From: Elusimicrobiaceae bacterium
Lineage (GTDB): Bacteria > Elusimicrobiota > Elusimicrobia > Elusimicrobiales > Elusimicrobiaceae
Assembly (NCBI GenBank): GCA_017961295.1
Contig: JAGCXL010000037.1
Span: forward strand, 1-43,478
Length of the DNA: 43,478 nt
Direction of reading: 5' to 3'
Each line of letters starts with the position of its first letter. Positions within the stretch are counted from its first letter, which is position 1. The translations under genes and the position numbers were made by a program. Below the pieces are notes generated by a model. It worked only from the letters and a program-made list of their open reading frames with translations. It did no database searches and was not told the DNA's origin. This document shows positions 4,963 through 43,392 of the stretch, one piece after another.

Positions 4963-6225
4963 CTAGTGTAGATTTTGGTTGCGGATGCGCATAATTTCTT
5001 GGAACATACCGGACTCGTCTTTTTGACGCCAATATTGCAAACTGTCCCACAGGAGTTCTTCGTCTTCAAAGGGAACAAATCCTTCATTTGAGAAAGCGCT
5101 TGAGTGGAGCATTTCGGGATAGCTGCGTTTGGTTTGCTTTACAAAACGGGCAAATAAAGCCAGGGTATCTGCTTGAGACAAGACTGGCGGTTGTTGGGCA
5201 GAATCCCAAATTACCTGTATTTGCTTGCGATAGGAAATTAAGGGGTTAAATTTGTTAATTTCATCGTGTTGCACGATCCATTGGTATTCTTCCCACAGTT
5301 CCTGTTCCTGTTTGTTGCGGGTATTCCACTTGGGCAGGTAACCGCCGTTGTTGCGGATGAACGTATCCAAGCGCATGGCAAAGGCTTCGTAATAGACCGT
5401 TTGCAATTGGATAATTTCCGAGAATTTGGCAGCACTTAAGCGGCTTTGATATTGGTTGTGCGCTTCTTTAATGACAGCTCTGAAAGCACCGTATTCCTCT
5501 AAGGTGTTAAGGGAATTGGCATTTAAAAAGTATTTCAGACGCCCTTTAACCTCTTGGTCCACCAGCGGATTGTACATTAGGCGGCGCAAGTTTAAGTTCA
5601 TTTGATGCGGATGGCGCACGGTATAGTCAAAAGCGGAGTCTTCAAAGGATTTATCCAAACAGAAGTAGTCCGTCAAGTCCTGGGCCATAGCGTAGATGTT
5701 TAATTCTTCCAGGTTATTTAGCAAGGTTTGGCGCAGATAGTGGCTCTTGATGTTTGCTTGGATATCCTGCGCTAGGGACGAGATGCCCTCTTCGCTTAGT
5801 ACGGTAATATTTAAGATATTGTTGCGAATAGCGCGCGCGGCATCAATTTCCGGTTTGTAAAAAAGATTTTCGTCGCGCATTTTTACTAAAATTTCTTTTT
5901 CCACCGGTTGGCCGGCTACTAATAAGCTGGAATTTTTAAACTCCTGTTGTGGAAATTGATTATAATTGACAACGGGAAGTAGTTGTTCAGCCGCTTGGGT
6001 AGAAGTGCGGTTGAGTACTCCGGCGGCGATGGCACGTTGGATTTTGTCTGTGGTAGGACGGGAAAAAACAAAACGTTGCGTAACGCCGCGGGTAGTACGC
6101 GGGGCGTGAAAGAGGGCATGGCCCCCCTTGACAATTTCTTTACCGCCACCGGCAAATGCGGCAACGGCAGTGCTTGCGCAGAGTACAGCTACAGCCAATT
6201 TTTTACAGGTTAGTGATATCTTCAT
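4963..6225 (-). CDS. Exported protein of unknown function
   Basis: 420 residues with a clear signal peptide (MKISLTCKKLAVAVLCASTA, cleavage near AFA/GGG, residues 23-26). The mature protein is mostly helical and polar, with no transmembrane segment, no lipobox and no cysteine cluster; I see no catalytic motif. A basic stretch after the signal (HAPRTTRGVTQRF) precedes a long helical body rich in Asn, Gln and Tyr. I recognise no family. It stands alone between the greA terminator and the GH57 terminator. No Shine-Dalgarno is seen; a TATAGT box lies 6 nt before the ATG, suggesting a leaderless message. Confidence 0.75.
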   Translation of the reverse strand: MKISLTCKKLAVAVLCASTAVAAFAGGGKEIVKGGHALFHAPRTTRGVTQRFVFSRPTTDKIQRAIAAGVLNRTSTQAAEQLLPVVNYNQFPQQEFKNSSLLVAGQPVEKEILVKMRDENLFYKPEIDAARAIRNNILNITVLSEEGISSLAQDIQANIKSHYLRQTLLNNLEELNIYAMAQDLTDYFCLDKSFEDSAFDYTVRHPHQMNLNLRRLMYNPLVDQEVKGRLKYFLNANSLNTLEEYGAFRAVIKEAHNQYQSRLSAAKFSEIIQLQTVYYEAFAMRLDTFIRNNGGYLPKWNTRNKQEQELWEEYQWIVQHDEINKFNPLISYRKQIQVIWDSAQQPPVLSQADTLALFARFVKQTKRSYPEMLHSSAFSNEGFVPFEDEELLWDSLQYWRQKDESGMFQEIMRIRNQNLH

Positions 6226-6231
6226 ATTTAT

Positions 6232-6237
6232 ACTATA
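6232..6237 (-). promoter_or_regulatory. -10 box (TATAGT) six nt before the exported-protein start
   Basis: On the minus strand TATAGT-ATAAAT-ATG. The spacing puts the transcription start at the start codon. The same arrangement and nearly the same bases (TATAGT-ATAAGT-ATG) occur before the PpiC lipoprotein gene at 23153. Confidence 0.45.
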
Positions 6238-6304
6238 TGAATATTTGGGTAGAAAAACGAGGGCCTTTAGGCCTAGGAGTGCCTAGGTCTTTAGTACTAT
6301 ATAA

Positions 6305-6333
6305 AAGGGGCCGGCATGCATGCCCGACCCCTT
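6305..6333 (-). terminator. Terminator of the DUF4912-GH57 operon
   Basis: AAGGGG (6305-6310) pairs with CCCCTT (6328-6333) around the palindrome GGCATGCATGCC. The A run at 6303-6306 becomes the U tract on the minus strand. Just beyond it, 6261-6287 holds two more short palindromes (GGCCTTTAGGCC and a CCTAGG pair) whose role is unclear. Confidence 0.7.
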
Positions 6334-8886: not shown

Positions 8887-9062
8887 CCATCTACATTTTA
8901 GCATATTTGGGGCGAAAACAAAGTGAAAAAATTAGTTAGTTTTTAAATTGTAATTTAGTAAAGCTAAAGTAGGGGTGATATTCTAGATAGGACTTTATTT
9001 TTTGAAAGCAAAAATGTAAAATAAAACTTAAAGCAATTGAGTGTAAGTTGTTGGAGGCGAGG

Positions 9063-10376
9063 ATGAAAGTTGCTGGATTTACGTTGCTGGAACTTTTAAT
9101 AGTGATCATTATTTGCAGTTTATTAGTTATATTTGCCGTACCTCAATATAAACATGCTACCTATGCAAGCCGGTATAGTTCCTTGTTTCCCATTGCCAAA
9201 GCTATACACACCAGCAACGAGGTATTTTTTCTTTCCCATGGATATTATGCGGATTCTTTAGATAAATTGGCGGTTGACGTACCTGAATTGCATTCAAAAA
9301 AAATCAACGTTGAACTACATGATTCAAACGGGCTTTCTTATGTATTAACTACTCGGAACGGGCTTAATAGTAATTACGTCATGTATGCAAAAAACAGCCA
9401 AATGTTTCCTCATCAAACTCATTGCGAAGCGAAGGAGGGTGATTCTTTGGCTAATTGGTTTTGCTCGTCGAAGTTGCATGGGGTACAGTCAGAACATGGG
9501 AATTTAACTCAGGGTTATATTACCTACATTATAGATGGTGATGGAACAGGGGGGACCTTTATTACCCACTACGAAAATCAGTCCAACATCGTTTTGCATA
9601 GTGGAGATACCTGCACGGCAAGCCAAGCCAATGAATGTCAGCATTTGGAAGTATCAGATGCTGAGTGTGAGGCTATAGGGGTTAATGGCGGTTGTGCCAA
9701 TTCTTCCTACGATGAAGGAGCCGAGTGTAGTACAACAAACGGAGGGAAGCAGGGGTGTGCGTTCTCTGAATTTTCAAACAATTCCACTTGTACCGCTGGC
9801 CAAGCAGGAGGGAAAAGCCCGGTGGCAGGCTGTCAGCGAAGTATTTTTACAAGTGGATCTTTATGCGTTGTTAATCAAAATACTGCAAACGCAGCCGTTG
9901 ATACGGCGTGTGGAGGCAACAATAATGGCGGTAAGACGGACACTACGGGTGAAAATTCCGCACAGTACTATCATTCTGAATGTATTAACGAGTCCAACAG
10001 TAGCTTTGGTTGCGGACGCAGTTGGTATAAAGAAGGGTCCACCTGCACATCAAGTCCTACAAATGGCGGGTGCGGGAATTCTCTCTTTGATGCTTCGCGT
10101 TGTATAGGAAGAGGGGGAAATGCGTGCGATAAAAGCAACTTCACAAATGGGTCGGTTTGCGAGGCCCGGGCTTCGGGCACTTGCCCGACGTCCGGAAGTA
10201 CCTACGATTCACAATCTTATTGTGCGGGTGAAAATGGCGCCAGATATAGTTATTGTCCCGTTGGTACACCGGCCCCGCCGGCAACACCGGGTGGCTTAAC
10301 AACGGGAAGGAAATGGCGTAAATGTACGGCCCAAGATGATCCTCCCAAATCCGGCATGAGTTGCTACGACGATTAA
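9063..10376 (+). CDS. Large type IV pilin-like protein with Cys-rich repeat domain
   Basis: 437 residues from the ATG at 9063, which has GGAGG 5 nt upstream; an in-frame TTG at 9048 is less likely. The prepilin signal is MKVAG/FTLLELLIVIIICSL: Gly at -1, Phe at +1 and Glu at +5, with a hydrophobic helix to about residue 28. The next part (SRYSSLFPIAKAIHTSNEVFFLSHGYYADSLDKLAVDVP in outline) matches the other pilins in this window. The C-terminal half is Cys-, Gly-, Asn- and Ser-rich and holds six copies of a 12-13-residue Cys module, then a Pro-rich end. Ordinary pilins are 100-180 residues, so this is an extended, probably disulfide-stabilised pilus tip or adhesin-like protein. Function is inferred. 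Confidence 0.85.
   Translation: MKVAGFTLLELLIVIIICSLLVIFAVPQYKHATYASRYSSLFPIAKAIHTSNEVFFLSHGYYADSLDKLAVDVPELHSKKINVELHDSNGLSYVLTTRNGLNSNYVMYAKNSQMFPHQTHCEAKEGDSLANWFCSSKLHGVQSEHGNLTQGYITYIIDGDGTGGTFITHYENQSNIVLHSGDTCTASQANECQHLEVSDAECEAIGVNGGCANSSYDEGAECSTTNGGKQGCAFSEFSNNSTCTAGQAGGKSPVAGCQRSIFTSGSLCVVNQNTANAAVDTACGGNNNGGKTDTTGENSAQYYHSECINESNSSFGCGRSWYKEGSTCTSSPTNGGCGNSLFDASRCIGRGGNACDKSNFTNGSVCEARASGTCPTSGSTYDSQSYCAGENGARYSYCPVGTPAPPATPGGLTTGRKWRKCTAQDDPPKSGMSCYDD
9689..10160 (+). repeat. Six Cys modules within the pilin-like protein
   Basis: The translated units are GCANSSYDEGAEC, GCAFSEFSNNSTC, GCQRSIFTSGSLC, GCGRSWYKEGSTC, GCGNSLFDASRC and ACDKSNFTNGSVC. The shared pattern is [GA]-C-x2-S-x-[FYW]-x2-x-[SA]-x-C, separated by 5-40 residues of Gly/Asn/Ser/Thr linker that often begins and ends with further Cys. 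Confidence 0.8.
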
Positions 10377-11354: not shown

Positions 11355-11873
11355 CTAAGGGATATTCCACCAGTCGAGTCCCTGTGAGTCAGTACCCTTG
11401 TGTTGGGTACCGGGTATACTGTCGCAGAACCGGGCGGCGTGCGTATTAAGACGGGCGGCACATCGCCTAATGGAGCGATATTGACTGGTAGGCATATAGT
11501 ACAAAATATCGGAACCATCAGATAGCAGCATTTGTCCGATGACTCTATGATCGGAAGCTTCTAAACGAATATATTGTTTTTTTGAAGTATTTGAGGCAAT
11601 TTGTTTGTAACTGGCATTATCTTTGCTTGTAAATCCCTTTGGTAAATCTATAGCGAGATCTTCAAATTTTTCGGGCCATTTCCCGTTACCAAGGTAATAA
11701 ACGCTTTTAGCATCGGCCACTGCTTTTAAAAGCGGAATAAATGCTGCAAAACGTGTTTTATCTACGGCTGTTCTATATTGTGGTAAAGCTACTGCTGCTA
11801 AAATAGCGATAATCAATACGACGATTAACAACTCAATGAGCGTAAAACCCCGCCGGGTGTTTTGGTGTGTCAT
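11355..11873 (-). CDS. Type IV pilin-like protein (prepilin)
   Basis: 172 residues from the ATG at 11873, chosen because AGGAG lies 5 nt upstream; the in-frame GTG at 11879 overlaps that Shine-Dalgarno. The prepilin leader MTHQNTRRG is cut before FTLIELLIVVLIIAILAAVA, with Gly at -1 and Glu at +5. The helix continues into ALPQYRTAVDKTRFAAFIP and a globular domain (DAKSVYYLGNGKWPEKFEDLAIDLP). Two Cys near the C-terminus (RRCAARL, ARFCDSI) could form the D-region disulfide. No pilus assembly genes are nearby. Its message is predicted to have a long structured leader. Confidence 0.93.
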   Translation of the reverse strand: MTHQNTRRGFTLIELLIVVLIIAILAAVALPQYRTAVDKTRFAAFIPLLKAVADAKSVYYLGNGKWPEKFEDLAIDLPKGFTSKDNASYKQIASNTSKKQYIRLEASDHRVIGQMLLSDGSDILYYMPTSQYRSIRRCAARLNTHAARFCDSIPGTQHKGTDSQGLDWWNIP

Positions 11874-12127
11874 ATACACTCCTCATGTTGGGTTTTAATT
11901 TGTCTGTTTGGAGTGTGCATAAAAACGGCTGCAATGCATGAGCTTACTAACATGAGCCCAATAGAACAGCCGTAGTTTACCGTATTAAACGATAAACGTT
12001 CAACACAAAGCAAACGGGTAATTAGGCCGTTTAATTTGTGTTTGAAACGACTGTTTTGGTTGTTAGTAAACACGCAAGCGTGTCAGTTATACGAGTATAA
12101 CTCCAAAAACAGAAAAATTGTACTAAC
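11874..12127 (-). promoter_or_regulatory. Long hairpin-rich 5' leader of the pilin gene
   Basis: No gene is supported here. Successive inverted repeats are: 12085-12092/12095-12102 (AGTTATAC with GTATAACT), 12070-12075/12078-12083 (ACACGC with GCGTGT), 11999-12009/12035-12046 with an inner pair 12012-12017/12027-12032 (AAACGG with CCGTTT), 11975-11979/11986-11990, and 11925-11931/11967-11973 (ACGGCTG with CAGCCGT). A 9-mer at 11944-11952 (TTACTAACA) is complementary to 12061-12069, allowing an alternative long-range fold. It could be a regulatory RNA, or the two 12070-12102 palindromes could be operators. Confidence 0.5.
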
Positions 12128-12179: not shown

Positions 12180-13073
12180 ATGCGTAAGCACTTGTTTTCT
12201 ATTCTATTTTTGTTGGTAGCCGCGGCTATTTGGTGGGCCTCTATTTCTTCCACAGTGCGTAATCCGGTGGCAGATAATGATAACCCGGTGCTGGTAACCT
12301 CCGGCTATGTGCCATATACGTTGGCCAAACAGTTGGCGGGGGATTTTGTGAACGTGCTGATGCTACTTCCGCCCGGTACCGAGCCGCACTCGTTTGAACC
12401 TACCCCCGGAGCTCTTATCACCTTAAAACACGCCAACGCTTTTGTGTATTTATCTAATGAGTTGGAACCCTGGGCGGCCGATTTGGCCAAAGTGGTTCAA
12501 AATGCGCCGGTTATAAAATTGGCGGATAGTGTACCCGGTTCAACCGATCCGCATGTGTGGATGAATTTAGAAAATACAAAACTTTTAGCTGCACAAATAG
12601 AGCAAGTGCTTGTGAAAATTGACCCGACCCACGCGGCGACTTATCAAGCAAATTTGGCCAAACTAAATGCGGAAATAGATGAACTGGCACAGGAATTTCA
12701 AACGGTGCTTGCCAATTGTCAGTCGCGAGAGGTAGTGCACGTGGGACACTTGGCTTTTCAAAATTTAACGGATACTTACGGCCTTACATTAACTGCATTA
12801 GCGGGTACGAGTCATGACGGAGAACATTCCGCCCAAAGGCTGGCGGGTTTGGTGGACGGAATCAAAGCCAAAGGCGTGCGTACTATTTTTACCGAGGACA
12901 CGCTATCCCCCAAACTGGCGCGTGTGGTAGCCCAAGAAACAGGTGCGCAAATTTTGCCGCTCTACCCCATTGAACATATTTCCAAAAAAGATTTTAATAA
13001 TAACGTAACCTATGCTCAACTCATGCGGCGCAATTTGGAAAGTTTAAAACGGGGGTTGGTATGCCCAGCGTAA
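12180..13073 (+). CDS. znuA: Zinc/manganese ABC transporter substrate-binding protein
   Basis: 297 residues. An N-terminal hydrophobic segment (about 4-22) serves as signal or anchor; there is no lipobox Cys. Family motifs include the His ligand in GTEPHSFEPTP, DPHVWMN, the second-lobe HVGHLAFQNLTDTYGL, and the acidic ligand region IFTEDTLSPKLARVVAQETG. Helical backbone between lobes is visible around DPTHAATYQANLAKLNAEID. The protein captures Zn2+ (or Mn2+) in the periplasm for the ZnuCB pump. The usual His-rich loop of proteobacterial ZnuA is absent. Overlaps znuC by 13 nt. Zinc versus manganese cannot be settled by sequence; the operon with a His-rich ATPase tail favours zinc. Confidence 0.93.
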   Translation: MRKHLFSILFLLVAAAIWWASISSTVRNPVADNDNPVLVTSGYVPYTLAKQLAGDFVNVLMLLPPGTEPHSFEPTPGALITLKHANAFVYLSNELEPWAADLAKVVQNAPVIKLADSVPGSTDPHVWMNLENTKLLAAQIEQVLVKIDPTHAATYQANLAKLNAEIDELAQEFQTVLANCQSREVVHVGHLAFQNLTDTYGLTLTALAGTSHDGEHSAQRLAGLVDGIKAKGVRTIFTEDTLSPKLARVVAQETGAQILPLYPIEHISKKDFNNNVTYAQLMRRNLESLKRGLVCPA

Positions 13074-21178: not shown

Positions 21179-22348
21179 TTATTTTTTAACTTCGTCTTTT
21201 TTGTTTTCTTCTTTCTTGGCTTGCTCGGCGGCAATGGCTTTATCTACTTCAAATTCTTTCGTAATTTTGATGTCTGCCTTTTCAGCCAAGCCCGATAAGT
21301 ATTTGGCCTGCGCCTCTAAAATACGGGTTTGGGCAATATATTGGCCTAAATCGTTTTTAATTTCATCAAATTCAATGGTGCGTTCGGCGCGTTTTTCTTT
21401 GACCTTAATAATGTGGTACCCCAGGTCCGTTTTAATGGGGTCACTCACTTTGCCTACAGGTAAAGAGAAGGCTTTGGCATCAATTTCTTTGGGGGCCATC
21501 CCTTTGACCAAAATCATATCTCCGCCGGTTGCCAAGGCTTGTTGATCCTCGGTATAGTTTTTGACGGCAGTAGAAAAATCCATCCCGTTATTTAATTCTT
21601 GTTTAATTTTTTTAGCCAGTTCTTCTTTGGCTTTTTTATCTGCGGCAGACATATCTTGCGGTGTGGCTAAGAAGATATGCCCCACGCGTACTTGCTCGGA
21701 AGAGAGTTGTTTTAATTTGGTGGCAATGGCTTGAACTTCCAGTAAGTGTTGCGGGTCTTCTTTTTCCATTTCTTTAATCTTTTTGGTATTATTCTTTAAG
21801 ACGGCTTGTACTTCGTCAAACAAGGCTTTGGCGTCTGCTTCTTCTACCGGTTTAACGGTTTTTTTGAGTTCTTGCTCCAACAGTTTGCGGGAAGCAATTT
21901 CTTTAGAGAGTTTGGTCTTGTAAGTTTTAAGCGTCATCCCTTGTTTTTTAAGAGCTTCGTTGAAGCGTTTTTCGGCCCCTTTAGGGTCGGGTTGTCCGGT
22001 CTTTTCATCAATGGCAAAGCGGGTTTTAATTTCATTAAGTCCTTCGTCCAGTTCCGAATCTTTAACCGTGATTTTAGCCTCTTGGGCGGCCTGGTAGACC
22101 AGTTCCTTGGAAATTAAATCTTTTAGCACTTCTTTGCCCAACAAATCCTTTGCGTACGGACGGGCCAAAAATTGGGGGGCGGTGGCTTGGTATTGCTCCA
22201 CTACGCTTTGCAAGTAAGAATCATATTCCGAAGCGAGCACGGGTTTTCCGTTTACGGTAGCCACGGAAGACTCCATGACTTTGGCCTGCGCGCCAAACCC
22301 TAAGCATAACGCGAACAGGGCGATGAAGAATTTATTCGTTTTTGTCAT
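21179..22348 (-). CDS. Periplasmic PpiC-type peptidyl-prolyl isomerase/foldase (SurA/PrsA-like)
   Basis: 389 residues: a signal peptide (MTKTNKFFIALFALCLGFGAQA, residues 1-22), a SurA_N-like chaperone region (VATVNGKPVLASEYDSYLQSVVEQY in outline; about 28-180), a charged helical linker, and a PpiC/parvulin domain (about 215-330) with VRVGHIFLATPQDMS, FSTAVKNYTEDQQALATGGDM and TDLGYHIIKVKEKR. The C-terminus is a Lys/Glu tail. It assists folding of exported and outer-membrane proteins. It overlaps the PpiC lipoprotein gene by 17 nt and is the last gene of the PBP1A-mfd unit. Confidence 0.9.
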   Translation of the reverse strand: MTKTNKFFIALFALCLGFGAQAKVMESSVATVNGKPVLASEYDSYLQSVVEQYQATAPQFLARPYAKDLLGKEVLKDLISKELVYQAAQEAKITVKDSELDEGLNEIKTRFAIDEKTGQPDPKGAEKRFNEALKKQGMTLKTYKTKLSKEIASRKLLEQELKKTVKPVEEADAKALFDEVQAVLKNNTKKIKEMEKEDPQHLLEVQAIATKLKQLSSEQVRVGHIFLATPQDMSAADKKAKEELAKKIKQELNNGMDFSTAVKNYTEDQQALATGGDMILVKGMAPKEIDAKAFSLPVGKVSDPIKTDLGYHIIKVKEKRAERTIEFDEIKNDLGQYIAQTRILEAQAKYLSGLAEKADIKITKEFEVDKAIAAEQAKKEENKKDEVKK

Positions 22349-28589: not shown

Positions 28590-29699
28590 ATGTGTTCTAA
28601 GCCAATTTTCGCTCAAGCGGGAAAAGGCGGTAGTGCTTGCTCCGGTCCTCGTACAATTGGTAAGGGTAAAACAGGCAAAGTTGCCGGGCAGGGCGTGCCG
28701 CAGTTTTCTACGCAGGCATATCATACGATTTTACTTTTCAAGTTGCCCGCGTCTGCTGCGCAGGTGTGTAGTTGTTTGGCGCCTGAAATAGCGGCGGAGC
28801 TAACTACTCCGCGTGGATTGCACCAAACTTATTTACGCCAGGCCTTTGCTACTGCGCGCCCGAATAGTTATGAGTGGCAGGAAGGCATGCGGGTGCATCA
28901 AACAACTTTGTTGCCGCTTACAAACTGTGACGGAAAGGTGGGCGAAGTTTTGAGTGTAACACGCGATATTTCAACTTGGGGTACTCTGCGGCAGACAAGC
29001 GCAAGTTTTTTGCATGACGGCTCGGCCCCGCGGACATTTGCGCAAATGTTGCTGGCCGCGCGCGAAATTGAAAAGCGCGAAGTGGCTAAAGCGTTGCATG
29101 ATGAAATCGGCACTGCTTCGGTAATGTTGGCAGCACTTGTCAACCTAACCAAACAAAGTGTACAGAAAGGGAACACGCAGCAAGCCCTTAAAGATTTAGA
29201 ACGTTTGCAAATTCAAACGCAACACAGTATTGAGCGTTTGCGCAATATTATTGTTGCTTTGCGTCCCCCCAGTTTGGATACCGACGGGGCTTTGCGCGGC
29301 AGTATAGAAGAACTTGTTAAAGAAGTTTGTGAGCTGGGGCGGCTGACGTATCGGTTTGTGTGCTCGCAAAAAATGCCCGAAAAAGGTATTTGCGATCAGG
29401 TTAAAATTTTGCTTTATCGGTTGGTGCAAGAAGCCCTTAGTAATGTAGTTAAACACGCACAGGCTACGCGCGTGACCGTGCAACTAAAACGAATAAAAGG
29501 GAAACTTTTTTTAACGATAACCGACGATGGAATCGGATTTAAAAAAACACAACGTTGCTCCATTAATCATGTGGGGTTGCGCTCTATGCAAGATAGTGTC
29601 CGCCTTTTAGGTGGGGAATTAGAAATCTTAAGTACGCCGGGGAAAGGAACTCAAATTAAAGTTACTTGCCCTTGCTTTGTGTATGAGGGAAACCAATGA
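28590..29699 (+). CDS. NarL-family (HisKA_3) sensor histidine kinase with PAS-like domain
   Basis: 369 residues, no membrane segment. After a Gly/Lys-rich, poorly conserved start (about 1-40) comes a PAS-like region (about 42-128) ending in a PAC-type strand pair (HQTTLLPLTNCDGKVGEVL, SVTRDIS). The HisKA_3 domain carries His170 in EVAKALHDEIG, and the HATPase_c domain shows the N box (RLVQEALSNVVKHAQA) and DDGIGF plus NHVGLRSMQDSVRLLGG. It is a cytoplasmic sensor paired with the response regulator that overlaps it by 4 nt (ATGA). GAGGCAG precedes the ATG. The signal is unknown. Confidence 0.92.
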   Translation: MCSKPIFAQAGKGGSACSGPRTIGKGKTGKVAGQGVPQFSTQAYHTILLFKLPASAAQVCSCLAPEIAAELTTPRGLHQTYLRQAFATARPNSYEWQEGMRVHQTTLLPLTNCDGKVGEVLSVTRDISTWGTLRQTSASFLHDGSAPRTFAQMLLAAREIEKREVAKALHDEIGTASVMLAALVNLTKQSVQKGNTQQALKDLERLQIQTQHSIERLRNIIVALRPPSLDTDGALRGSIEELVKEVCELGRLTYRFVCSQKMPEKGICDQVKILLYRLVQEALSNVVKHAQATRVTVQLKRIKGKLFLTITDDGIGFKKTQRCSINHVGLRSMQDSVRLLGGELEILSTPGKGTQIKVTCPCFVYEGNQ

Positions 29700-30337
29700 T
29701 TAAAATTATATTAGCAGATGACCATGCCTTGGTACGCCAAGGGGTACGCATGATGTTGGAAACGAACAAAAAAGAATTTGAAGTAATTGGGGAAGTTTCC
29801 AATGGACAGGAATTATTGGAACTAGCCAAAAAGAAACCGGCTGACGTATATATTGTAGATATTTCCATGCCGGTACTTAATGGGGTAGAAGCAGTCAGTA
29901 AACTGCTGCGTCAGGATCACAAAGCCAAAGTGCTGATTTTAAGCATGTATGATGATCGCGTGTCTGTGGAAAAAGCCTTAAAAGCCGGGGCCAAAGGCTT
30001 TGTGGTGAAAGTTTCCCGCGCCGAAGAACTGCTAGAAGCCGTGCGGGAAGTAGCCGCCGGTCGATTCTATTTCGGCGGGAAAATATCTAAATTTTTAGTA
30101 CAAGGCTTTTTAGGTAAACGGGCTCCTAAAAAAGACGGAACCCATTTAACCAATAAAGAAAAAGAAGTGCTGCAACTGATTGCCGAAGGGTACAGCAGCA
30201 AGCAAATTGCCAAACATTTTACGCTTTCTTTAAACACGATTCACGTGCACCGCAATAATATTATGCGCAAACTGGGTATCCATAAACAGGCCGAGTTAGT
30301 GCGTTACGCGCTTAAAGAAGGTATTGCCCAACTATAA
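29696..30337 (+). CDS. NarL/FixJ-family response regulator
   Basis: 213 residues. Receiver domain (1-120) with the acidic pocket ADDH, phospho-acceptor Asp55 in YIVDISMP, the Thr/Ser position in LILSMYDD, and Lys in FVVKVSRAEEL. A LuxR-type helix-turn-helix occupies about 148-213 (LTNKEKEVLQLIAEGYSSKQ; KHFTLSLNTIHVHRNNIM). It is the cognate partner of the overlapping kinase and regulates transcription when phosphorylated. Because it begins a run that continues through rsmD to the proline genes, autoregulation of that operon is possible. Confidence 0.96.
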   Translation: MIKIILADDHALVRQGVRMMLETNKKEFEVIGEVSNGQELLELAKKKPADVYIVDISMPVLNGVEAVSKLLRQDHKAKVLILSMYDDRVSVEKALKAGAKGFVVKVSRAEELLEAVREVAAGRFYFGGKISKFLVQGFLGKRAPKKDGTHLTNKEKEVLQLIAEGYSSKQIAKHFTLSLNTIHVHRNNIMRKLGIHKQAELVRYALKEGIAQL

Positions 30338-36520: not shown

Positions 36521-37723
36521 ATGTTTAGTAATCTGCAACTTCAAAAATATGCGGATGTTTTAATTTGGGCTTTACATGCCGCGCGGCGTAACGGAAATTT
36601 TAAAAAGTATGATAGTGTGTTATTGCGTACGGATATGGCGGCTGCGCCGCTTGCCAAAGCTGTTTATACTAAATTGTTGGAACAACATTATAATGTACTT
36701 TTACGTTGGAACGCACCGGAAGATTTTACTACTGCTTTCTACGAGTTGGCGGATAACAAGCAACTTGCCTATTTGCCGGTGGGGGAAAAAGAGATCCAGG
36801 GTAACATTAACGGCCTAATTGCGTTGCACGCTCCGCAGGATTTGACCCATCTTAAAAAAATTAACCCGGCTAAACTTGCTAAGAGTGCCGTAGCACGCAA
36901 ACCCGTACGCGAAATTTTGGATGTGCGCGAGCAAAAAGGGCTGTTTTCGTGGACACTTTGCAATTATCCCACGCAAGAATTGGCTGCGCGGGCCGGATTG
37001 TCTGTTAAAGAATATGCCAATCAGGTAGCACGGGCGTGCTTTTTAAATGAAAAAGACCCTGTTAAAAAATGGCAGGAAGTCACCCGGCAAATTAACGAGA
37101 TTGGCAAGTGGCTTTCGGCACTACCGATTAAAACCTTGCGTGTGCAAACTAAAAATATGGACTTTGAGGTTTTGTTGGGTGAAAAGCGCAAATTTATTGC
37201 AGGCGGTGGGTGTAATATCCCGTCTTTTGAAATTTTTACCTCGCCGGATTGGCGCGGTACGCGCGGCATATATTTTGCCGATTTATCTTCTTACCGCAGC
37301 GGCAATTATGTAAAGGGTGTGCGCTTAGAGTTTAAAAACGGGCGTGTCATCAAAGCAGGTGCCGAGCAAGGGGCCGATTTTGTGCGCAAGATGCTTGCGA
37401 TGGATAAAGGGGCCAGCCAAATCGGCGAGTTTTCTTTGACAGACCGCCGGTTTTCCAAAATTACCAAATTTATGGCGGATATTTTATTTGATGAAAACTT
37501 TGGTGGAAAATACGGCAACTGCCACGTAGCGGTGGGGGCCAGTTATGCCGACACGTTTAGCGGCCCGCAAAGTAAATTAGACAAAAAGATGAAGGAAAAA
37601 TTAGGCTTTAATGATTCTTCTTTGCATTGGGATTTAATCAATACGGAAGATAAAACCGTTACGGCTACCTTAAAAGACGGTTCCAAAAAAGTCGTGTACG
37701 AAAAGGGACAATTTCGCTATTAG
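36521..37723 (+). CDS. M29-family metallo-aminopeptidase
   Basis: 400 residues, the usual size for the AmpS/PepS/aminopeptidase T family. Family landmarks are NLQLQKYADVLIWALHAARRNG in outline at the N-terminus and the metal-binding C-terminal blocks: the Glu in NIPSFEIFTSPDW, Glu in IGEFSLTDRR, His in GNCHVAVGASY and the HWDLI block (SSLHWDLINTED). A two-metal site removes N-terminal residues from peptides in the cytoplasm. AAGGGGG lies 7 nt before the ATG. It is followed by the first copy of the terminator-promoter repeat. Confidence 0.95.
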   Translation: MFSNLQLQKYADVLIWALHAARRNGNFKKYDSVLLRTDMAAAPLAKAVYTKLLEQHYNVLLRWNAPEDFTTAFYELADNKQLAYLPVGEKEIQGNINGLIALHAPQDLTHLKKINPAKLAKSAVARKPVREILDVREQKGLFSWTLCNYPTQELAARAGLSVKEYANQVARACFLNEKDPVKKWQEVTRQINEIGKWLSALPIKTLRVQTKNMDFEVLLGEKRKFIAGGGCNIPSFEIFTSPDWRGTRGIYFADLSSYRSGNYVKGVRLEFKNGRVIKAGAEQGADFVRKMLAMDKGASQIGEFSLTDRRFSKITKFMADILFDENFGGKYGNCHVAVGASYADTFSGPQSKLDKKMKEKLGFNDSSLHWDLINTEDKTVTATLKDGSKKVVYEKGQFRY

Positions 37724-37739
37724 AGAAAAAGACCTATAT

Positions 37740-37813
37740 AAAAGGCCCACCGTTTGATGGGCCTTTTGGCCTATGGTATTTTGGCTTTAAGTTCCCTATA
37801 CTATAAGTAAGAA
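37740..37813 (+). repeat. Terminator-promoter cassette, copy 1
   Basis: 74 bp identical, base for base, to 38458-38531. It starts with a terminator hairpin (AAAAGGCCCA / TGGGCCTTTT, loop CCGTTTGA, 37740-37767) and ends with a promoter-like TATACT-ATAAGT (37797-37808). It ends M29 transcription and drives the first exported paralogue. Confidence 0.9.
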
Positions 37814-37832
37814 GGCCCTAAGAGGATTGAAA

Positions 37833-38453
37833 ATGATGAAAAAAGTACTAGCATTGTTTGGTGTGATGTTGTTTTGCGCTAACGTGTTTGCCCTAAACGC
37901 TGTAGCGCTTTCTGGTGAAGGGTGTCAAGATCAAAAAGATAGGTTTGAACGGTTGGTGGACGGATTAGACAAAGATTCGTTCATTGTTCAAAATATCTTG
38001 ACCGACTTGGTTTACCCAATGGCAGGTATGACAGATGAACAAGCGCAGCCGCTAGCCGTTTGTTATACTTCGTTTAAAGTAAAAGGAGTGGCCTTGGTGG
38101 AATTTGTACGTAAAAATGCGGACATTTCCATTGGGGATGTAATCGGAAAAGAAAAAGCGAATTTGCTTGCCTTTGCTGCACGCGTGGAACAACTCAGCGA
38201 AAAGGCCGCTTTTGACCAGGTGGTTGTAAAAAATAACGATTTGGCAATTGTGGACTATGTTTTTGAAAATATGATTAACCCCATGGAGCAAATGAGCGAG
38301 CAGCAAGCTGCGGGTAAAGTGGCTATTTACAAGACGTACCAAGTCAAAGGCCGGCCACTAAGTGAATTTCTCCATGAGCAGTCTATACACTTGGATATGT
38401 ATGCTGAAATACGTTTAGATGGTTTCGCCAATAAAATAGACCCTACTAAATAG
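37833..38453 (+). CDS. Exported two-repeat helical protein, paralogue 1
   Basis: 206 residues from the ATG at 37833 (AGAGG 7 nt upstream; an in-frame TTG at 37827 is unlikely). A signal peptide MMKKVLALFGVMLFCANVFA is cleaved before LNAVAL. The mature part is two copies of a roughly 75-residue helical unit: SFIVQNILTDLVYPM..MTDEQAQPLAVCYTSFKVKG (about 47-122) and AIVDYVFENMINPM..MSEQQAAGKVAIYKTYQVKG (about 136-202). No family is recognised. It has its own promoter and terminator in the flanking repeats. Its paralogue follows in tandem. Confidence 0.8.
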   Translation: MMKKVLALFGVMLFCANVFALNAVALSGEGCQDQKDRFERLVDGLDKDSFIVQNILTDLVYPMAGMTDEQAQPLAVCYTSFKVKGVALVEFVRKNADISIGDVIGKEKANLLAFAARVEQLSEKAAFDQVVVKNNDLAIVDYVFENMINPMEQMSEQQAAGKVAIYKTYQVKGRPLSEFLHEQSIHLDMYAEIRLDGFANKIDPTK

Positions 38454-38457
38454 ATTC

Positions 38458-38531
38458 AAAAGGCCCACCGTTTGATGGGCCTTTTGGCCTATGGTATTTT
38501 GGCTTTAAGTTCCCTATACTATAAGTAAGAA
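38458..38531 (+). repeat. Terminator-promoter cassette, copy 2
   Basis: Identical to 37740-37813. The first half terminates paralogue 1 and the TATACT-ATAAGT part (38515-38526) starts paralogue 2. Similarity continues into the leader and about 85% identity over the signal-peptide codons, then falls away. Confidence 0.9.
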
Positions 38532-38553
38532 AGCCCTAAAAGGAGGGGAAATT

Positions 38554-39171
38554 ATGAAAAAAGTGATCGCGTTGTTTGGTGTGATGTTGTTTTCCGCTTC
38601 CGCGTTTGCGTTAAACGCTGTAGCGCAAGGTGACGAAGATTGTGCCAGCAGAAAGGAAGCTTTTGAGCAGTATGCGGCAGAACAAAAGGTTTCTTTTATA
38701 GAACAAAACATCTTAATGAATATGGCCGACCCGATGGTAGGCATGAGCGATGAACAGGCATTGCCTTTAGCCGCTTGCTATGCTACCTTTGAAGTAAAAG
38801 GTGTGCCGTTTGTTAAGTTTGTGCGTGCTAATGCAGGCATTTTCCCCGGTGATATTAACGGGAAAGAAAAAACCGAACTCTTAAACTTTGCCGATCGTGT
38901 GGAAAGATTAAGTGAACAGGCAAACATTAACCGTGTGGCGGATGGAAACAATTCTTCGTTCATTATGCAATATATCTTGCTCAACTTTGCCGATAAAATT
39001 GCGGATTTAGAGGATGCACAAGCTGAGCCGTTAGCTAAAGTGTACAAGGCCTGCAACGTAAATGGTAAACCTATGTTGCAATACGTAAAGGAACATTCGA
39101 ATGAGTTTTATTCCGGTGTGAAAGCTGAGTTTGATACGTTTGTCAACCGGGTAGAACAATTGACCAAATAA
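38554..39171 (+). CDS. Exported two-repeat helical protein, paralogue 2
   Basis: 205 residues, signal peptide MKKVIALFGVMLFSASAFA then LNAVAQ. It has the same two-unit architecture: SFIEQNILMNMADPM..MSDEQALPLAACYATFEVKG (about 45-120) and SFIMQYILLNFADKI..LEDAQAEPLAKVYKACNVNG (about 135-203). By eye the first unit is about 60% identical to that of paralogue 1 while the second is much less so. AGGAGGGG lies 5 nt before the ATG. Function unknown; likely a periplasmic or surface protein. Confidence 0.8.
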   Translation: MKKVIALFGVMLFSASAFALNAVAQGDEDCASRKEAFEQYAAEQKVSFIEQNILMNMADPMVGMSDEQALPLAACYATFEVKGVPFVKFVRANAGIFPGDINGKEKTELLNFADRVERLSEQANINRVADGNNSSFIMQYILLNFADKIADLEDAQAEPLAKVYKACNVNGKPMLQYVKEHSNEFYSGVKAEFDTFVNRVEQLTK

Positions 39172-39186
39172 GTATTTTAAGTAAAT

Positions 39187-39226
39187 AAAAAGCCGCCGCA
39201 AGTTTCAAACTTGCGGCGGCACTATT
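39187..39226. terminator. Bidirectional terminator between paralogue 2 and nrdG
   Basis: A perfect 14-bp stem: 39192-39205 (GCCGCCGCAAGTTT) and 39207-39220, with A run to the left and ACTATTTT to the right. It serves both convergent units. Confidence 0.92.
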
Positions 39227-39239
39227 TTGTGAAGAAGAA

Positions 39240-39863
39240 TTATAATTCTTCGTGCATTACTTTTAGAGTGGCTTTCTCTTTGGCTACCGGTAAACACTCT
39301 TGCACTTTGTAATTTTTCCCGTCTACAGGAGCAGAGATGGTAGCAATGTCGTTATCGTCTAATATCTCTTTGTCGTACGTGGTGCGAAATTGATACTCCA
39401 ACCCGCTTTGGCGGATAAGGTCTATAGACTGGCGGATTACCGTAGAATTAGCTTCCACTCCTGTAATGGCCGCGTACTTGGTAAGAGGGGCCTTTAGGTC
39501 CATGGCAATAAAATCTACCAGTTTTTTGTTAATAAGTTCTTTTAATACTTCGGGACGGGTGCCGTTGGTGTCTAGCTTAATTTTATAACCTAGGGCCTTA
39601 ATATCCGCCATAAAGCGGACTAAGTCTTCTTGCAAAGTTGGTTCGCCACCCGATACAACCACGCCTTCTAAGGTGCCTTGGCGGCGCTTTAAAAAAGCCA
39701 TGATTTCTTCTTCGGGCATAGGTTCCTCAAACAGATGGGGGTAAACTAACTCCGGATTGTGGCAATAGCGGCAACGAAAATTGCACCCTTGTGTAAATAC
39801 AATTGCTGCCGGTCTGCCGGGGAAGTCAATTAAGGTAAACTTTACCAATCCGCCCAACTTCAT
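39240..39863 (-). CDS. nrdG: Anaerobic ribonucleotide reductase activating protein (radical SAM)
   Basis: 207 residues. The radical SAM cluster is CNFRCRYC (C-x3-C-x2-C) in FTQGCNFRCRYCHNPEL; the GGEP motif is VVSGGEPTLQEDL. It is the longer NrdG2 type (about 200-230 residues) rather than the 154-residue E. coli form. It uses SAM and a 4Fe-4S cluster to place a radical on the glycine of the class III enzyme, here carried by the small protein encoded 28 nt upstream. The order is nrdD, small protein, nrdG. Confidence 0.95.
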   Translation of the reverse strand: MKLGGLVKFTLIDFPGRPAAIVFTQGCNFRCRYCHNPELVYPHLFEEPMPEEEIMAFLKRRQGTLEGVVVSGGEPTLQEDLVRFMADIKALGYKIKLDTNGTRPEVLKELINKKLVDFIAMDLKAPLTKYAAITGVEANSTVIRQSIDLIRQSGLEYQFRTTYDKEILDDNDIATISAPVDGKNYKVQECLPVAKEKATLKVMHEEL

Positions 39864-43020: not shown

Positions 43021-43113
43021 TGGAACCTAAGGTGGGTTGGCAAATTTTAGCTGCCCGTTATGGGCTCTAATAGGCCGTAGGATTCGCTTTAAGGTATGGG
43101 GGGAATGATAAAA

Positions 43114-43392
43114 ATGGGAAACAGTCGTGCGTTTACGTTAGTCGAATTATTAGTGGTGGTATTAATTATCGGTGTTTTAGCGGCTGTGGCATTGCCGCAG
43201 TACCAAATGGCTGTATGGACCAGCCGTTACAGTACGATTAAATCTTTAGTTAGAACGATTGCCAATGCAGAGGAAGTATATTATTTGGCAAACGGCAATT
43301 ACACGGCAGATGTATCGCAACTGGACATTGATTTCCCTGTTCCGGATTCCAGTTCTGTTACACGTACTCTGGGCTTCAAGGAAATGAGGTAG
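43114..43392 (+). CDS. Type IV pilin-like protein, short or frameshifted
   Basis: 92 residues from the ATG at 43114 (GGGGGG about 10 nt upstream; ATGs at 43096 and 43105 are alternatives). The prepilin segment is [19 protein letters not shown] with Ala, not the usual Gly, at -1 and Glu at +5. Then [20 protein letters not shown] and [20 protein letters not shown] match the other pilins here. The frame stops at 43390-43392, while an open frame shifted by one base continues without a stop from about 43381 to the window end (DLNFAFRDLRFYSTAFSDGD). One extra G in AAGGAAATG would join them, so this may be a frameshifted gene, a sequencing error, or a truly short pilin. Confidence 0.75.

What the first reader, a model, noticed from the sequence alone, without database searches (positions are those of the whole stretch)
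37740..39171. Two exported paralogues behind a 74-bp identical terminator-promoter cassette
37740-37813 and 38458-38531 are identical over 74 bp. Each holds a complete terminator and a -10 box. Identity is about 85% over the signal-peptide codons and drops in the mature proteins (about 60% in the first repeat by eye, lower in the second). A conserved expression and secretion cassette followed by divergent mature sequence suggests gene conversion or selection on the control element, and a way to expand or vary a surface/periplasmic protein family.
Basis: partly seen in the sequence, partly recalled or inferred. Interest (0 to 1): 0.6.

Follow-up and report, generated by a model that had tools for sequence, protein, structure and literature searches.

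The report
Shared promoter for exported bacterial proteins
The identical 74-bp stretch in front of two secreted-protein genes is one version of a promoter that gut bacteria of the Elusimicrobium family place almost only before exported proteins, mostly of unknown function, which points to an undescribed secretion control network.

Summary
37740-37813 and 38458-38531 are 100% identical, and both sit before exported two-repeat helical proteins (A 37833-38453, B 38554-39171; 46-47% identical). Exact copies: two in this genome (MAG, 67% complete). The stretch is not mainly a terminator. It is a local version of a promoter/operator found across the family: two palindromes (RGGYC-N4-GRCCY), then TTG-N20-TATAAT. 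A profile of it finds a third copy in the window (6225-6306, minus strand), about 19 sites in this genome, and sites in 66/66 genus and 88/90 family genomes. Of 61 sites examined, 56 lead directly into a signal-peptide gene, against 39/129 genes at large. Most of these proteins match no known family. A and B are not a recent duplication: mature dS is about 2.2-2.5 against 0.4-0.7 for flanking genes between species. The mature-protein tree groups A with other species (A+B clade rejected, p-AU 0.025), whereas the cassette groups A with B. So recombination at the cassette, or homogenisation of it, placed the same promoter before diverged coding regions. A second species shows the same with 46 bp. 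Regulator unknown: CRP/FNR is disfavoured; a NarL-type response regulator is not distinguishable.

The parts
37740..37813 (+). Identical 74-bp promoter/operator cassette, copy A
   Evidence: model R1 hit 37740-37809, 41.7 bits
38458..38531 (+). Identical 74-bp promoter/operator cassette, copy B
   Evidence: model R1 hit 38449-38527, 44.2 bits
37759..37772 (+). Right palindrome GGGCC-TTTT-GGCCT of copy A (operator next to the -35 region)
   Evidence: sequence; conserved position in 94 sites
38477..38490 (+). Right palindrome of copy B
   Evidence: as copy A, offset 718
37797..37802 (+). -10 box TATACT of copy A
   Evidence: sequence; 20-21 nt after the palindrome+TTG/ATG in most sites
38515..38520 (+). 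-10 box TATACT of copy B
   Evidence: as copy A
37833..38453 (+). Gene A: exported two-repeat helical protein, 206 aa
   Evidence: ORF with signal peptide and SD; no Pfam or NCBIfam family
38554..39171 (+). Gene B: exported two-repeat helical protein, 205 aa; orthologue in G033 (RUG11256) 76% identical
   Evidence: AlphaFold2 model pLDDT 84
36521..37723 (+). Upstream conserved neighbour: M29 aminopeptidase
   Evidence: PF02073 E 9e-106; adjacent to nrdG in about 44 of 66 genus genomes
39240..39863 (-). Downstream conserved neighbour: anaerobic RNR activase-like radical SAM gene (nrdG)
   Evidence: name from sequence features and position before the anaerobic RNR gene
39192..39220 (.). True strong hairpin terminator between gene B and nrdG
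   Evidence: -25.4 kcal/mol, 13 pairs
6225..6306 (-). Third copy of the promoter/operator element in the window
   Evidence: R1 40.7 bits, E 7e-12
4963..6225 (-). Exported 420-aa protein behind the third element, start codon directly after the -10 region
   Evidence: no Pfam family

Best explanation
The 74-bp repeat is a promoter with an operator upstream: two tandem 14-bp palindromes (RGGYC-N4-GRCCY, mostly 23-24 bp centre to centre), the proximal one abutting a weak -35 (TTG), then 20 nt and a TATAAT-type -10. The same element stands before dozens of exported proteins across Elusimicrobiaceae. It probably binds one trans-acting activator (position about -42, and about -66), so these genes form a secretome regulon. 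At the locus between the M29 peptidase gene and nrdG the element drives a fast-evolving exported helical-repeat family. In this genome gene A came to stand behind the same cassette as B by recombination at, or homogenisation of, the cassette. Shown: sequence, spacing, genome-wide distribution, signal-peptide association, discordant trees. Inferred: activator binding, common regulation, mechanism of the exchange.
For: Element model R1: 3 sites in the window, about 19 in the genome, sites in 66/66 genus genomes (3-32 each at E<=1e-4) and 88/90 family genomes, with none in G089 as internal negative. 56 of 61 sites precede signal-peptide genes against 39/129 (Fisher 2e-16). In most sites 20-21 nt separate the proximal palindrome+TTG from the -10, and several start codons follow the -10 directly, which fits a promoter and not a leader RNA. 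A separate terminator lies upstream of the element in G033, G023, G035, G057, G031 and G046. Recombination: A-B mature dS 2.2-2.5, cassette 0/74 changes, B-G033 2/74; A+B protein clade rejected, cassette groups A with B; 46-bp analogue in G023, and no run over 29 bp between genomes.
Against: No regulator identified and no expression data. CRP/FNR-type regulators are not recognised in genomes rich in sites, and the NarL-type regulator does not track the element. Signal peptides were called with my own hydropathy rule, not a trained predictor. R1 was trained on the M29-locus elements. p-AU 0.025 is moderate and A is a long branch; the cassette tree alone does not exclude A+G012 (p-AU 0.077). Low 5'-end synonymous divergence also exists between single-copy orthologues (B-G033), so the gradient by itself does not prove conversion. 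Ten other tandem gene pairs at the locus show no shared cassette.
Confidence: 0.78

Rival explanations
1. Simple recent tandem duplication of one gene with its promoter, followed by fast divergence of the mature proteins.
For: Tandem position; identical 74 bp; the upstream flank of A matches the flank of the single G033 gene.
Against: Mature synonymous divergence A-B is saturated (2.2-2.5) while the species split from G033 is at 0.4-0.7; A+B clade rejected in the protein tree.
Confidence: 0.12
2. The hairpin is chiefly the intrinsic terminator of the preceding gene, kept identical because it is functional RNA.
For: Stable hairpin of -16 kcal/mol; lies after the M29 stop and after A's stop; compensatory-looking stems in several species.
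Against: Weak tail (UUUUGGCC); separate terminators upstream in several genomes; fixed 20-21 nt to the -10 in most sites; the third window copy folds no better than shuffles (z -0.5); association with signal-peptide genes downstream; no clear covariation among variable pairs; no Rfam family.
Confidence: 0.08
3. A small mobile repeat (MITE- or RU-like) inserted upstream of genes.
For: Many copies per genome, with inverted repeats.
Against: Site examples share one orientation toward the gene, a set spacing to the -10 and exported genes downstream; copies within a genome are diverged and the only long identical runs seen are between tandem copies.
Confidence: 0.03
4. Cassette identity is kept only by purifying selection (co-evolution with one regulator), without any recombination.
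For: Cassette changes 2/74 between orthologues while dS at flanking and repeat-1 sites is 0.43-0.73; a shared operator is expected to stay alike within a genome.
Against: The orthologues in G020, G056 and G012, at saturated synonymous divergence, differ from B at 18-21 of about 95 cassette sites; other operators in the same genome differ strongly from this one; 0/74 between A and B is then unlikely.
Confidence: 0.2

Closest known systems
PlcR regulon of Bacillus cereus (PlcR box; PMC2464732)
   Same: A palindromic box upstream of many promoters whose products are largely secreted.
   Different: Different box sequence (own knowledge: TATGNANNNNTNCATA) and a known PapR-dependent XRE-type regulator; here two palindromes at about -42 and -66 and an unknown regulator in another phylum.
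PEP-CTERM / PrsK-PrsR / RpoN-controlled surface proteins (PMC1569441, PMC9850573)
   Same: A shared promoter element marks a class of exported proteins.
   Different: Sigma-54 promoters there; here a TATAAT-type -10, and E. minutum lacks sigma-54 (PMC3162934). A C-terminal PEP motif was not looked for.
CRP/FNR class II activated promoters
   Same: 5-4-5 palindrome centred near -41.5, and a second site upstream.
   Different: Half-site RGGYC is unlike TTGAT or TGTGA, and most genus genomes have no CRP-type HTH over the Pfam cut-off.
NarL/FixJ-type response regulator sites
   Same: The site can be read as 7-2-7 (TAGGTCT-N2-AGACCTA); a NarL-type regulator (29696-30337) and a histidine kinase lie in this window.
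   Different: The regulator is conserved also in genus g6, which has no element sites.

Membership tests
CRP/FNR-controlled regulon | A CRP/FNR-type HTH protein in every genome with the element | tested here: not met
   PF13545: 10 of 90 family genomes over the cut-off; G009, 98% complete with 32 sites, has no match
CRP/FNR-controlled regulon | 5-4-5 palindrome centred near -41.5 | tested here: met
   Centre about 30 nt before the -10 hexamer in most sites; -42 is computed from an assumed start 7 nt after the -10
NarL/FixJ response-regulator regulon | Regulator present where, and only where, the element is | tested here: inconclusive
   Present in almost all genomes with the element but also in G089, which has none
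Sigma-70-type promoter | -10 hexamer near TATAAT at fixed spacing from a -35 | tested here: met
   TATACT, TACAAT and TATAAT are the commonest; 20-21 nt after TTG in 73 of 106 sites; -35 weak
Sigma-54 (RpoN) promoter | GG at -24, GC at -12; RpoN encoded | not tested
   By eye no -24/-12 motif; literature says E. minutum lacks sigma-54 (PMC3162934)
Known structured RNA (Rfam) | Match over gathering score | tested here: not met
   Only one chance-level sub-threshold hit, not at the cassettes
Intrinsic terminator | GC hairpin followed directly by a long U tract | tested here: inconclusive
   Hairpin yes, tail UUUUGGCC weak
Known protein family for A and B (Pfam, NCBIfam, PDB) | Significant profile match | tested here: not met
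   No Pfam or NCBIfam match over cut-off and no PDB sequence match
Armadillo/HEAT-like helical repeat fold | Clear structural match | tested here: inconclusive
   Best Z 8.2 over 78 residues, within the range of generic helical matches

The most novel reading that the evidence does not exclude
Elusimicrobiaceae have a dedicated secretome promoter: one unidentified regulator controls most of their lineage-specific exported proteins through a two-palindrome operator, and the operator also serves as a recombination site by which the exported gene between the M29 peptidase and nrdG is duplicated, swapped or replaced between species.
Probability: 0.3. Interest if true: 0.75.

Novelty: new member of a known kind. 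Interest (0 to 1): 0.6.

Why it matters
I found no regulon described for Elusimicrobiota in the open library searched. A sequence tag that predicts which uncharacterised proteins are co-controlled and exported gives a direct handle on how these gut bacteria meet their surroundings. It can be tested in a cultured member: genome G067, one contig of 1,643,562 bp, is by my recollection E. minutum Pei191. The M29-nrdG locus also offers a natural series of about 40 species for studying turnover of an exported protein family behind a conserved promoter.

Tried and rejected
Rfam at the locus: nothing. Viral contigs: no relatives of A/B. Plasmids: no DNA match. CRP/FNR as the regulator: disfavoured. 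NarL-type regulator in the window: not discriminating. RNA covariation: no clear preference among the variable pairs. Fold search: no clear relative; Foldseek best E 0.1, second-look best Z 8.2. A first, lenient signal-peptide test gave a 39% base rate and was replaced by a stricter one. Literature: no promoter or regulon work on Elusimicrobiota found in the open library; the E. minutum genome paper is not held.

Full report
Observation. 37740-37813 and 38458-38531 are identical over 74 bp. Identity ends at 37740 upstream and 37813 downstream. Gene A (37833-38453) and gene B (38554-39171) follow. Both have a signal peptide and two repeats of about 90 residues; they are 46-47% identical and match no Pfam or NCBIfam family. 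The exact cassette occurs only twice in the held genome, a 897-kb MAG estimated 67% complete. Named relatives are uncultured Elusimicrobium and Elusimicrobiaceae MAGs, one of them from roe-deer rumen.

The locus. The M29 peptidase gene (36521-37723) and the nrdG-like gene (39240-39863, minus) are neighbours in about 44 of 66 genus genomes. In about 40 the gap holds one to three exported genes, usually starting about 107-190 nt after the M29 stop; in five it is empty or nearly so. Most of these proteins are linked by profile comparison (window type to zeta 98.8%, zeta to beta 96.5%, beta to gamma, delta and eps 98.8% or more), and some look mosaic. AlphaFold2 gives gene B a confident all-helical two-repeat model (pLDDT 84) without a clear structural relative.

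The element. Aligning the upstream regions across species showed a shared architecture rather than a species-specific repeat: palindrome, about 10 nt, palindrome, TTG, 20 nt, TATAAT. In 94 well-formed sites the distance between the 14-mers is 10 nt in 63; in 106 sites the TTG-to-(-10) distance is 20 or 21 nt in 73. In the window's two cassettes the distal palindrome is degenerate and the proximal one is GGGCCTTTTGGCCT. The inverted repeat read as a terminator is formed by parts of these palindromes.

The set of genes. A sequence-only profile (R1) finds a third window site at 6225-6306 (-), before an exported 420-aa gene. It finds about 19 distinct sites in the genome, 3-32 per genome in all 66 genus genomes, and sites in 88 of 90 family genomes; genus g6 has none and g3 and g4 two each. 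Downstream genes were read for the window genome, for G009 and for seven genomes of two other genera. With a strict hydropathy and cleavage rule 56 of 61 sites lead into a signal-peptide gene, against 39 of 129 genes in control stretches (odds ratio 26). The control stretches centre on this locus, which makes the comparison conservative. Other signal-peptide-like genes in the window (for example 12180-13073, 21179-22348) have no site, so the element does not mark all exported genes. Of 30 downstream proteins scanned, most match no Pfam family; exceptions are M20 peptidases, an outer-membrane barrel, ankyrin repeats and an exported receiver-like domain.

Why a promoter and not a leader RNA or terminator. 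Several start codons follow the -10 region directly, as in leaderless mRNAs. In several genomes a separate terminator lies upstream of the element. The third window copy does not fold better than shuffles. Inference: an activator binds at about -42 and about -66.

History of the two copies. Mature A-B synonymous divergence is 2.2-2.5, signal-peptide codons 0.41, cassette 0/74. Between B and its G033 orthologue it is 0.73 (repeat 1), 0.06 (signal peptide) and 2/74 (cassette); flanking genes are at 0.43-0.66. In the mature-protein tree A groups with G012, G020 and G056, and an A+B clade is rejected (p-AU 0.025). In the cassette tree A and B group together (92/93) and with G033 (91/93), although A+G012 is not formally excluded (p 0.077). 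In G023 another tandem pair, with mature proteins 29% identical, shares a 46-bp identical stretch covering the operator; the longest run shared between genomes is 29 bp; the other ten tandem pairs share 11 bp or less. Recombination at, or homogenisation of, the cassette is therefore more likely than a recent duplication, but strong selection on the operator also contributes.

Regulator. CRP/FNR proteins over the Pfam cut-off occur in only 10 of 90 family genomes and none matches in G009, which has 32 sites. The NarL-type regulator at 29696-30337 is conserved in nearly all genomes, including G089 without sites. The regulator remains unknown.

Novelty. Palindromic boxes controlling secreted proteins are a known kind (PlcR, PMC2464732; PEP-CTERM, PMC9850573). 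I found no description of this one in the open library. Limits: MAG data, a home-made signal-peptide rule, a profile trained on one locus, and no expression data.

Noticed in passing
L115 1571-2602 (G000:C37): Exported 344-aa protein behind an element site carries a response-regulator receiver domain (PF00072, E 1.7e-8); a weaker one occurs in a G009 product (L152). A receiver domain behind a signal peptide is unusual.
   Followed up: no
window 28590-30337: Histidine kinase (HisKA_3) and NarL-type response regulator pair; the regulator is conserved across the family and is a candidate but unproven regulator of the element.
   Followed up: partly
L021 4916-6393 in M29-to-nrdG orientation (G033): At the position of gene A the closest relative has a different exported 184-aa gene without the palindromes upstream, suggesting gene replacement at this locus.
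   Followed up: partly
window 9048-10376, 11355-11879, 43096-43392: Type IV pilin-like genes (GFTLIELL-type motif) without the element; such genes also sit inside the M29-nrdG gap in G056, G023, G064 and G040.
   Followed up: no
G009:C1 34263-38888: Three element-driven exported genes lie close together, with partly alike cassettes.
   Followed up: no
L026 (G028:C28): nrdG orientation relative to the M29 gene is inverted and the anaerobic RNR gene lies between them, a local rearrangement.
   Followed up: no
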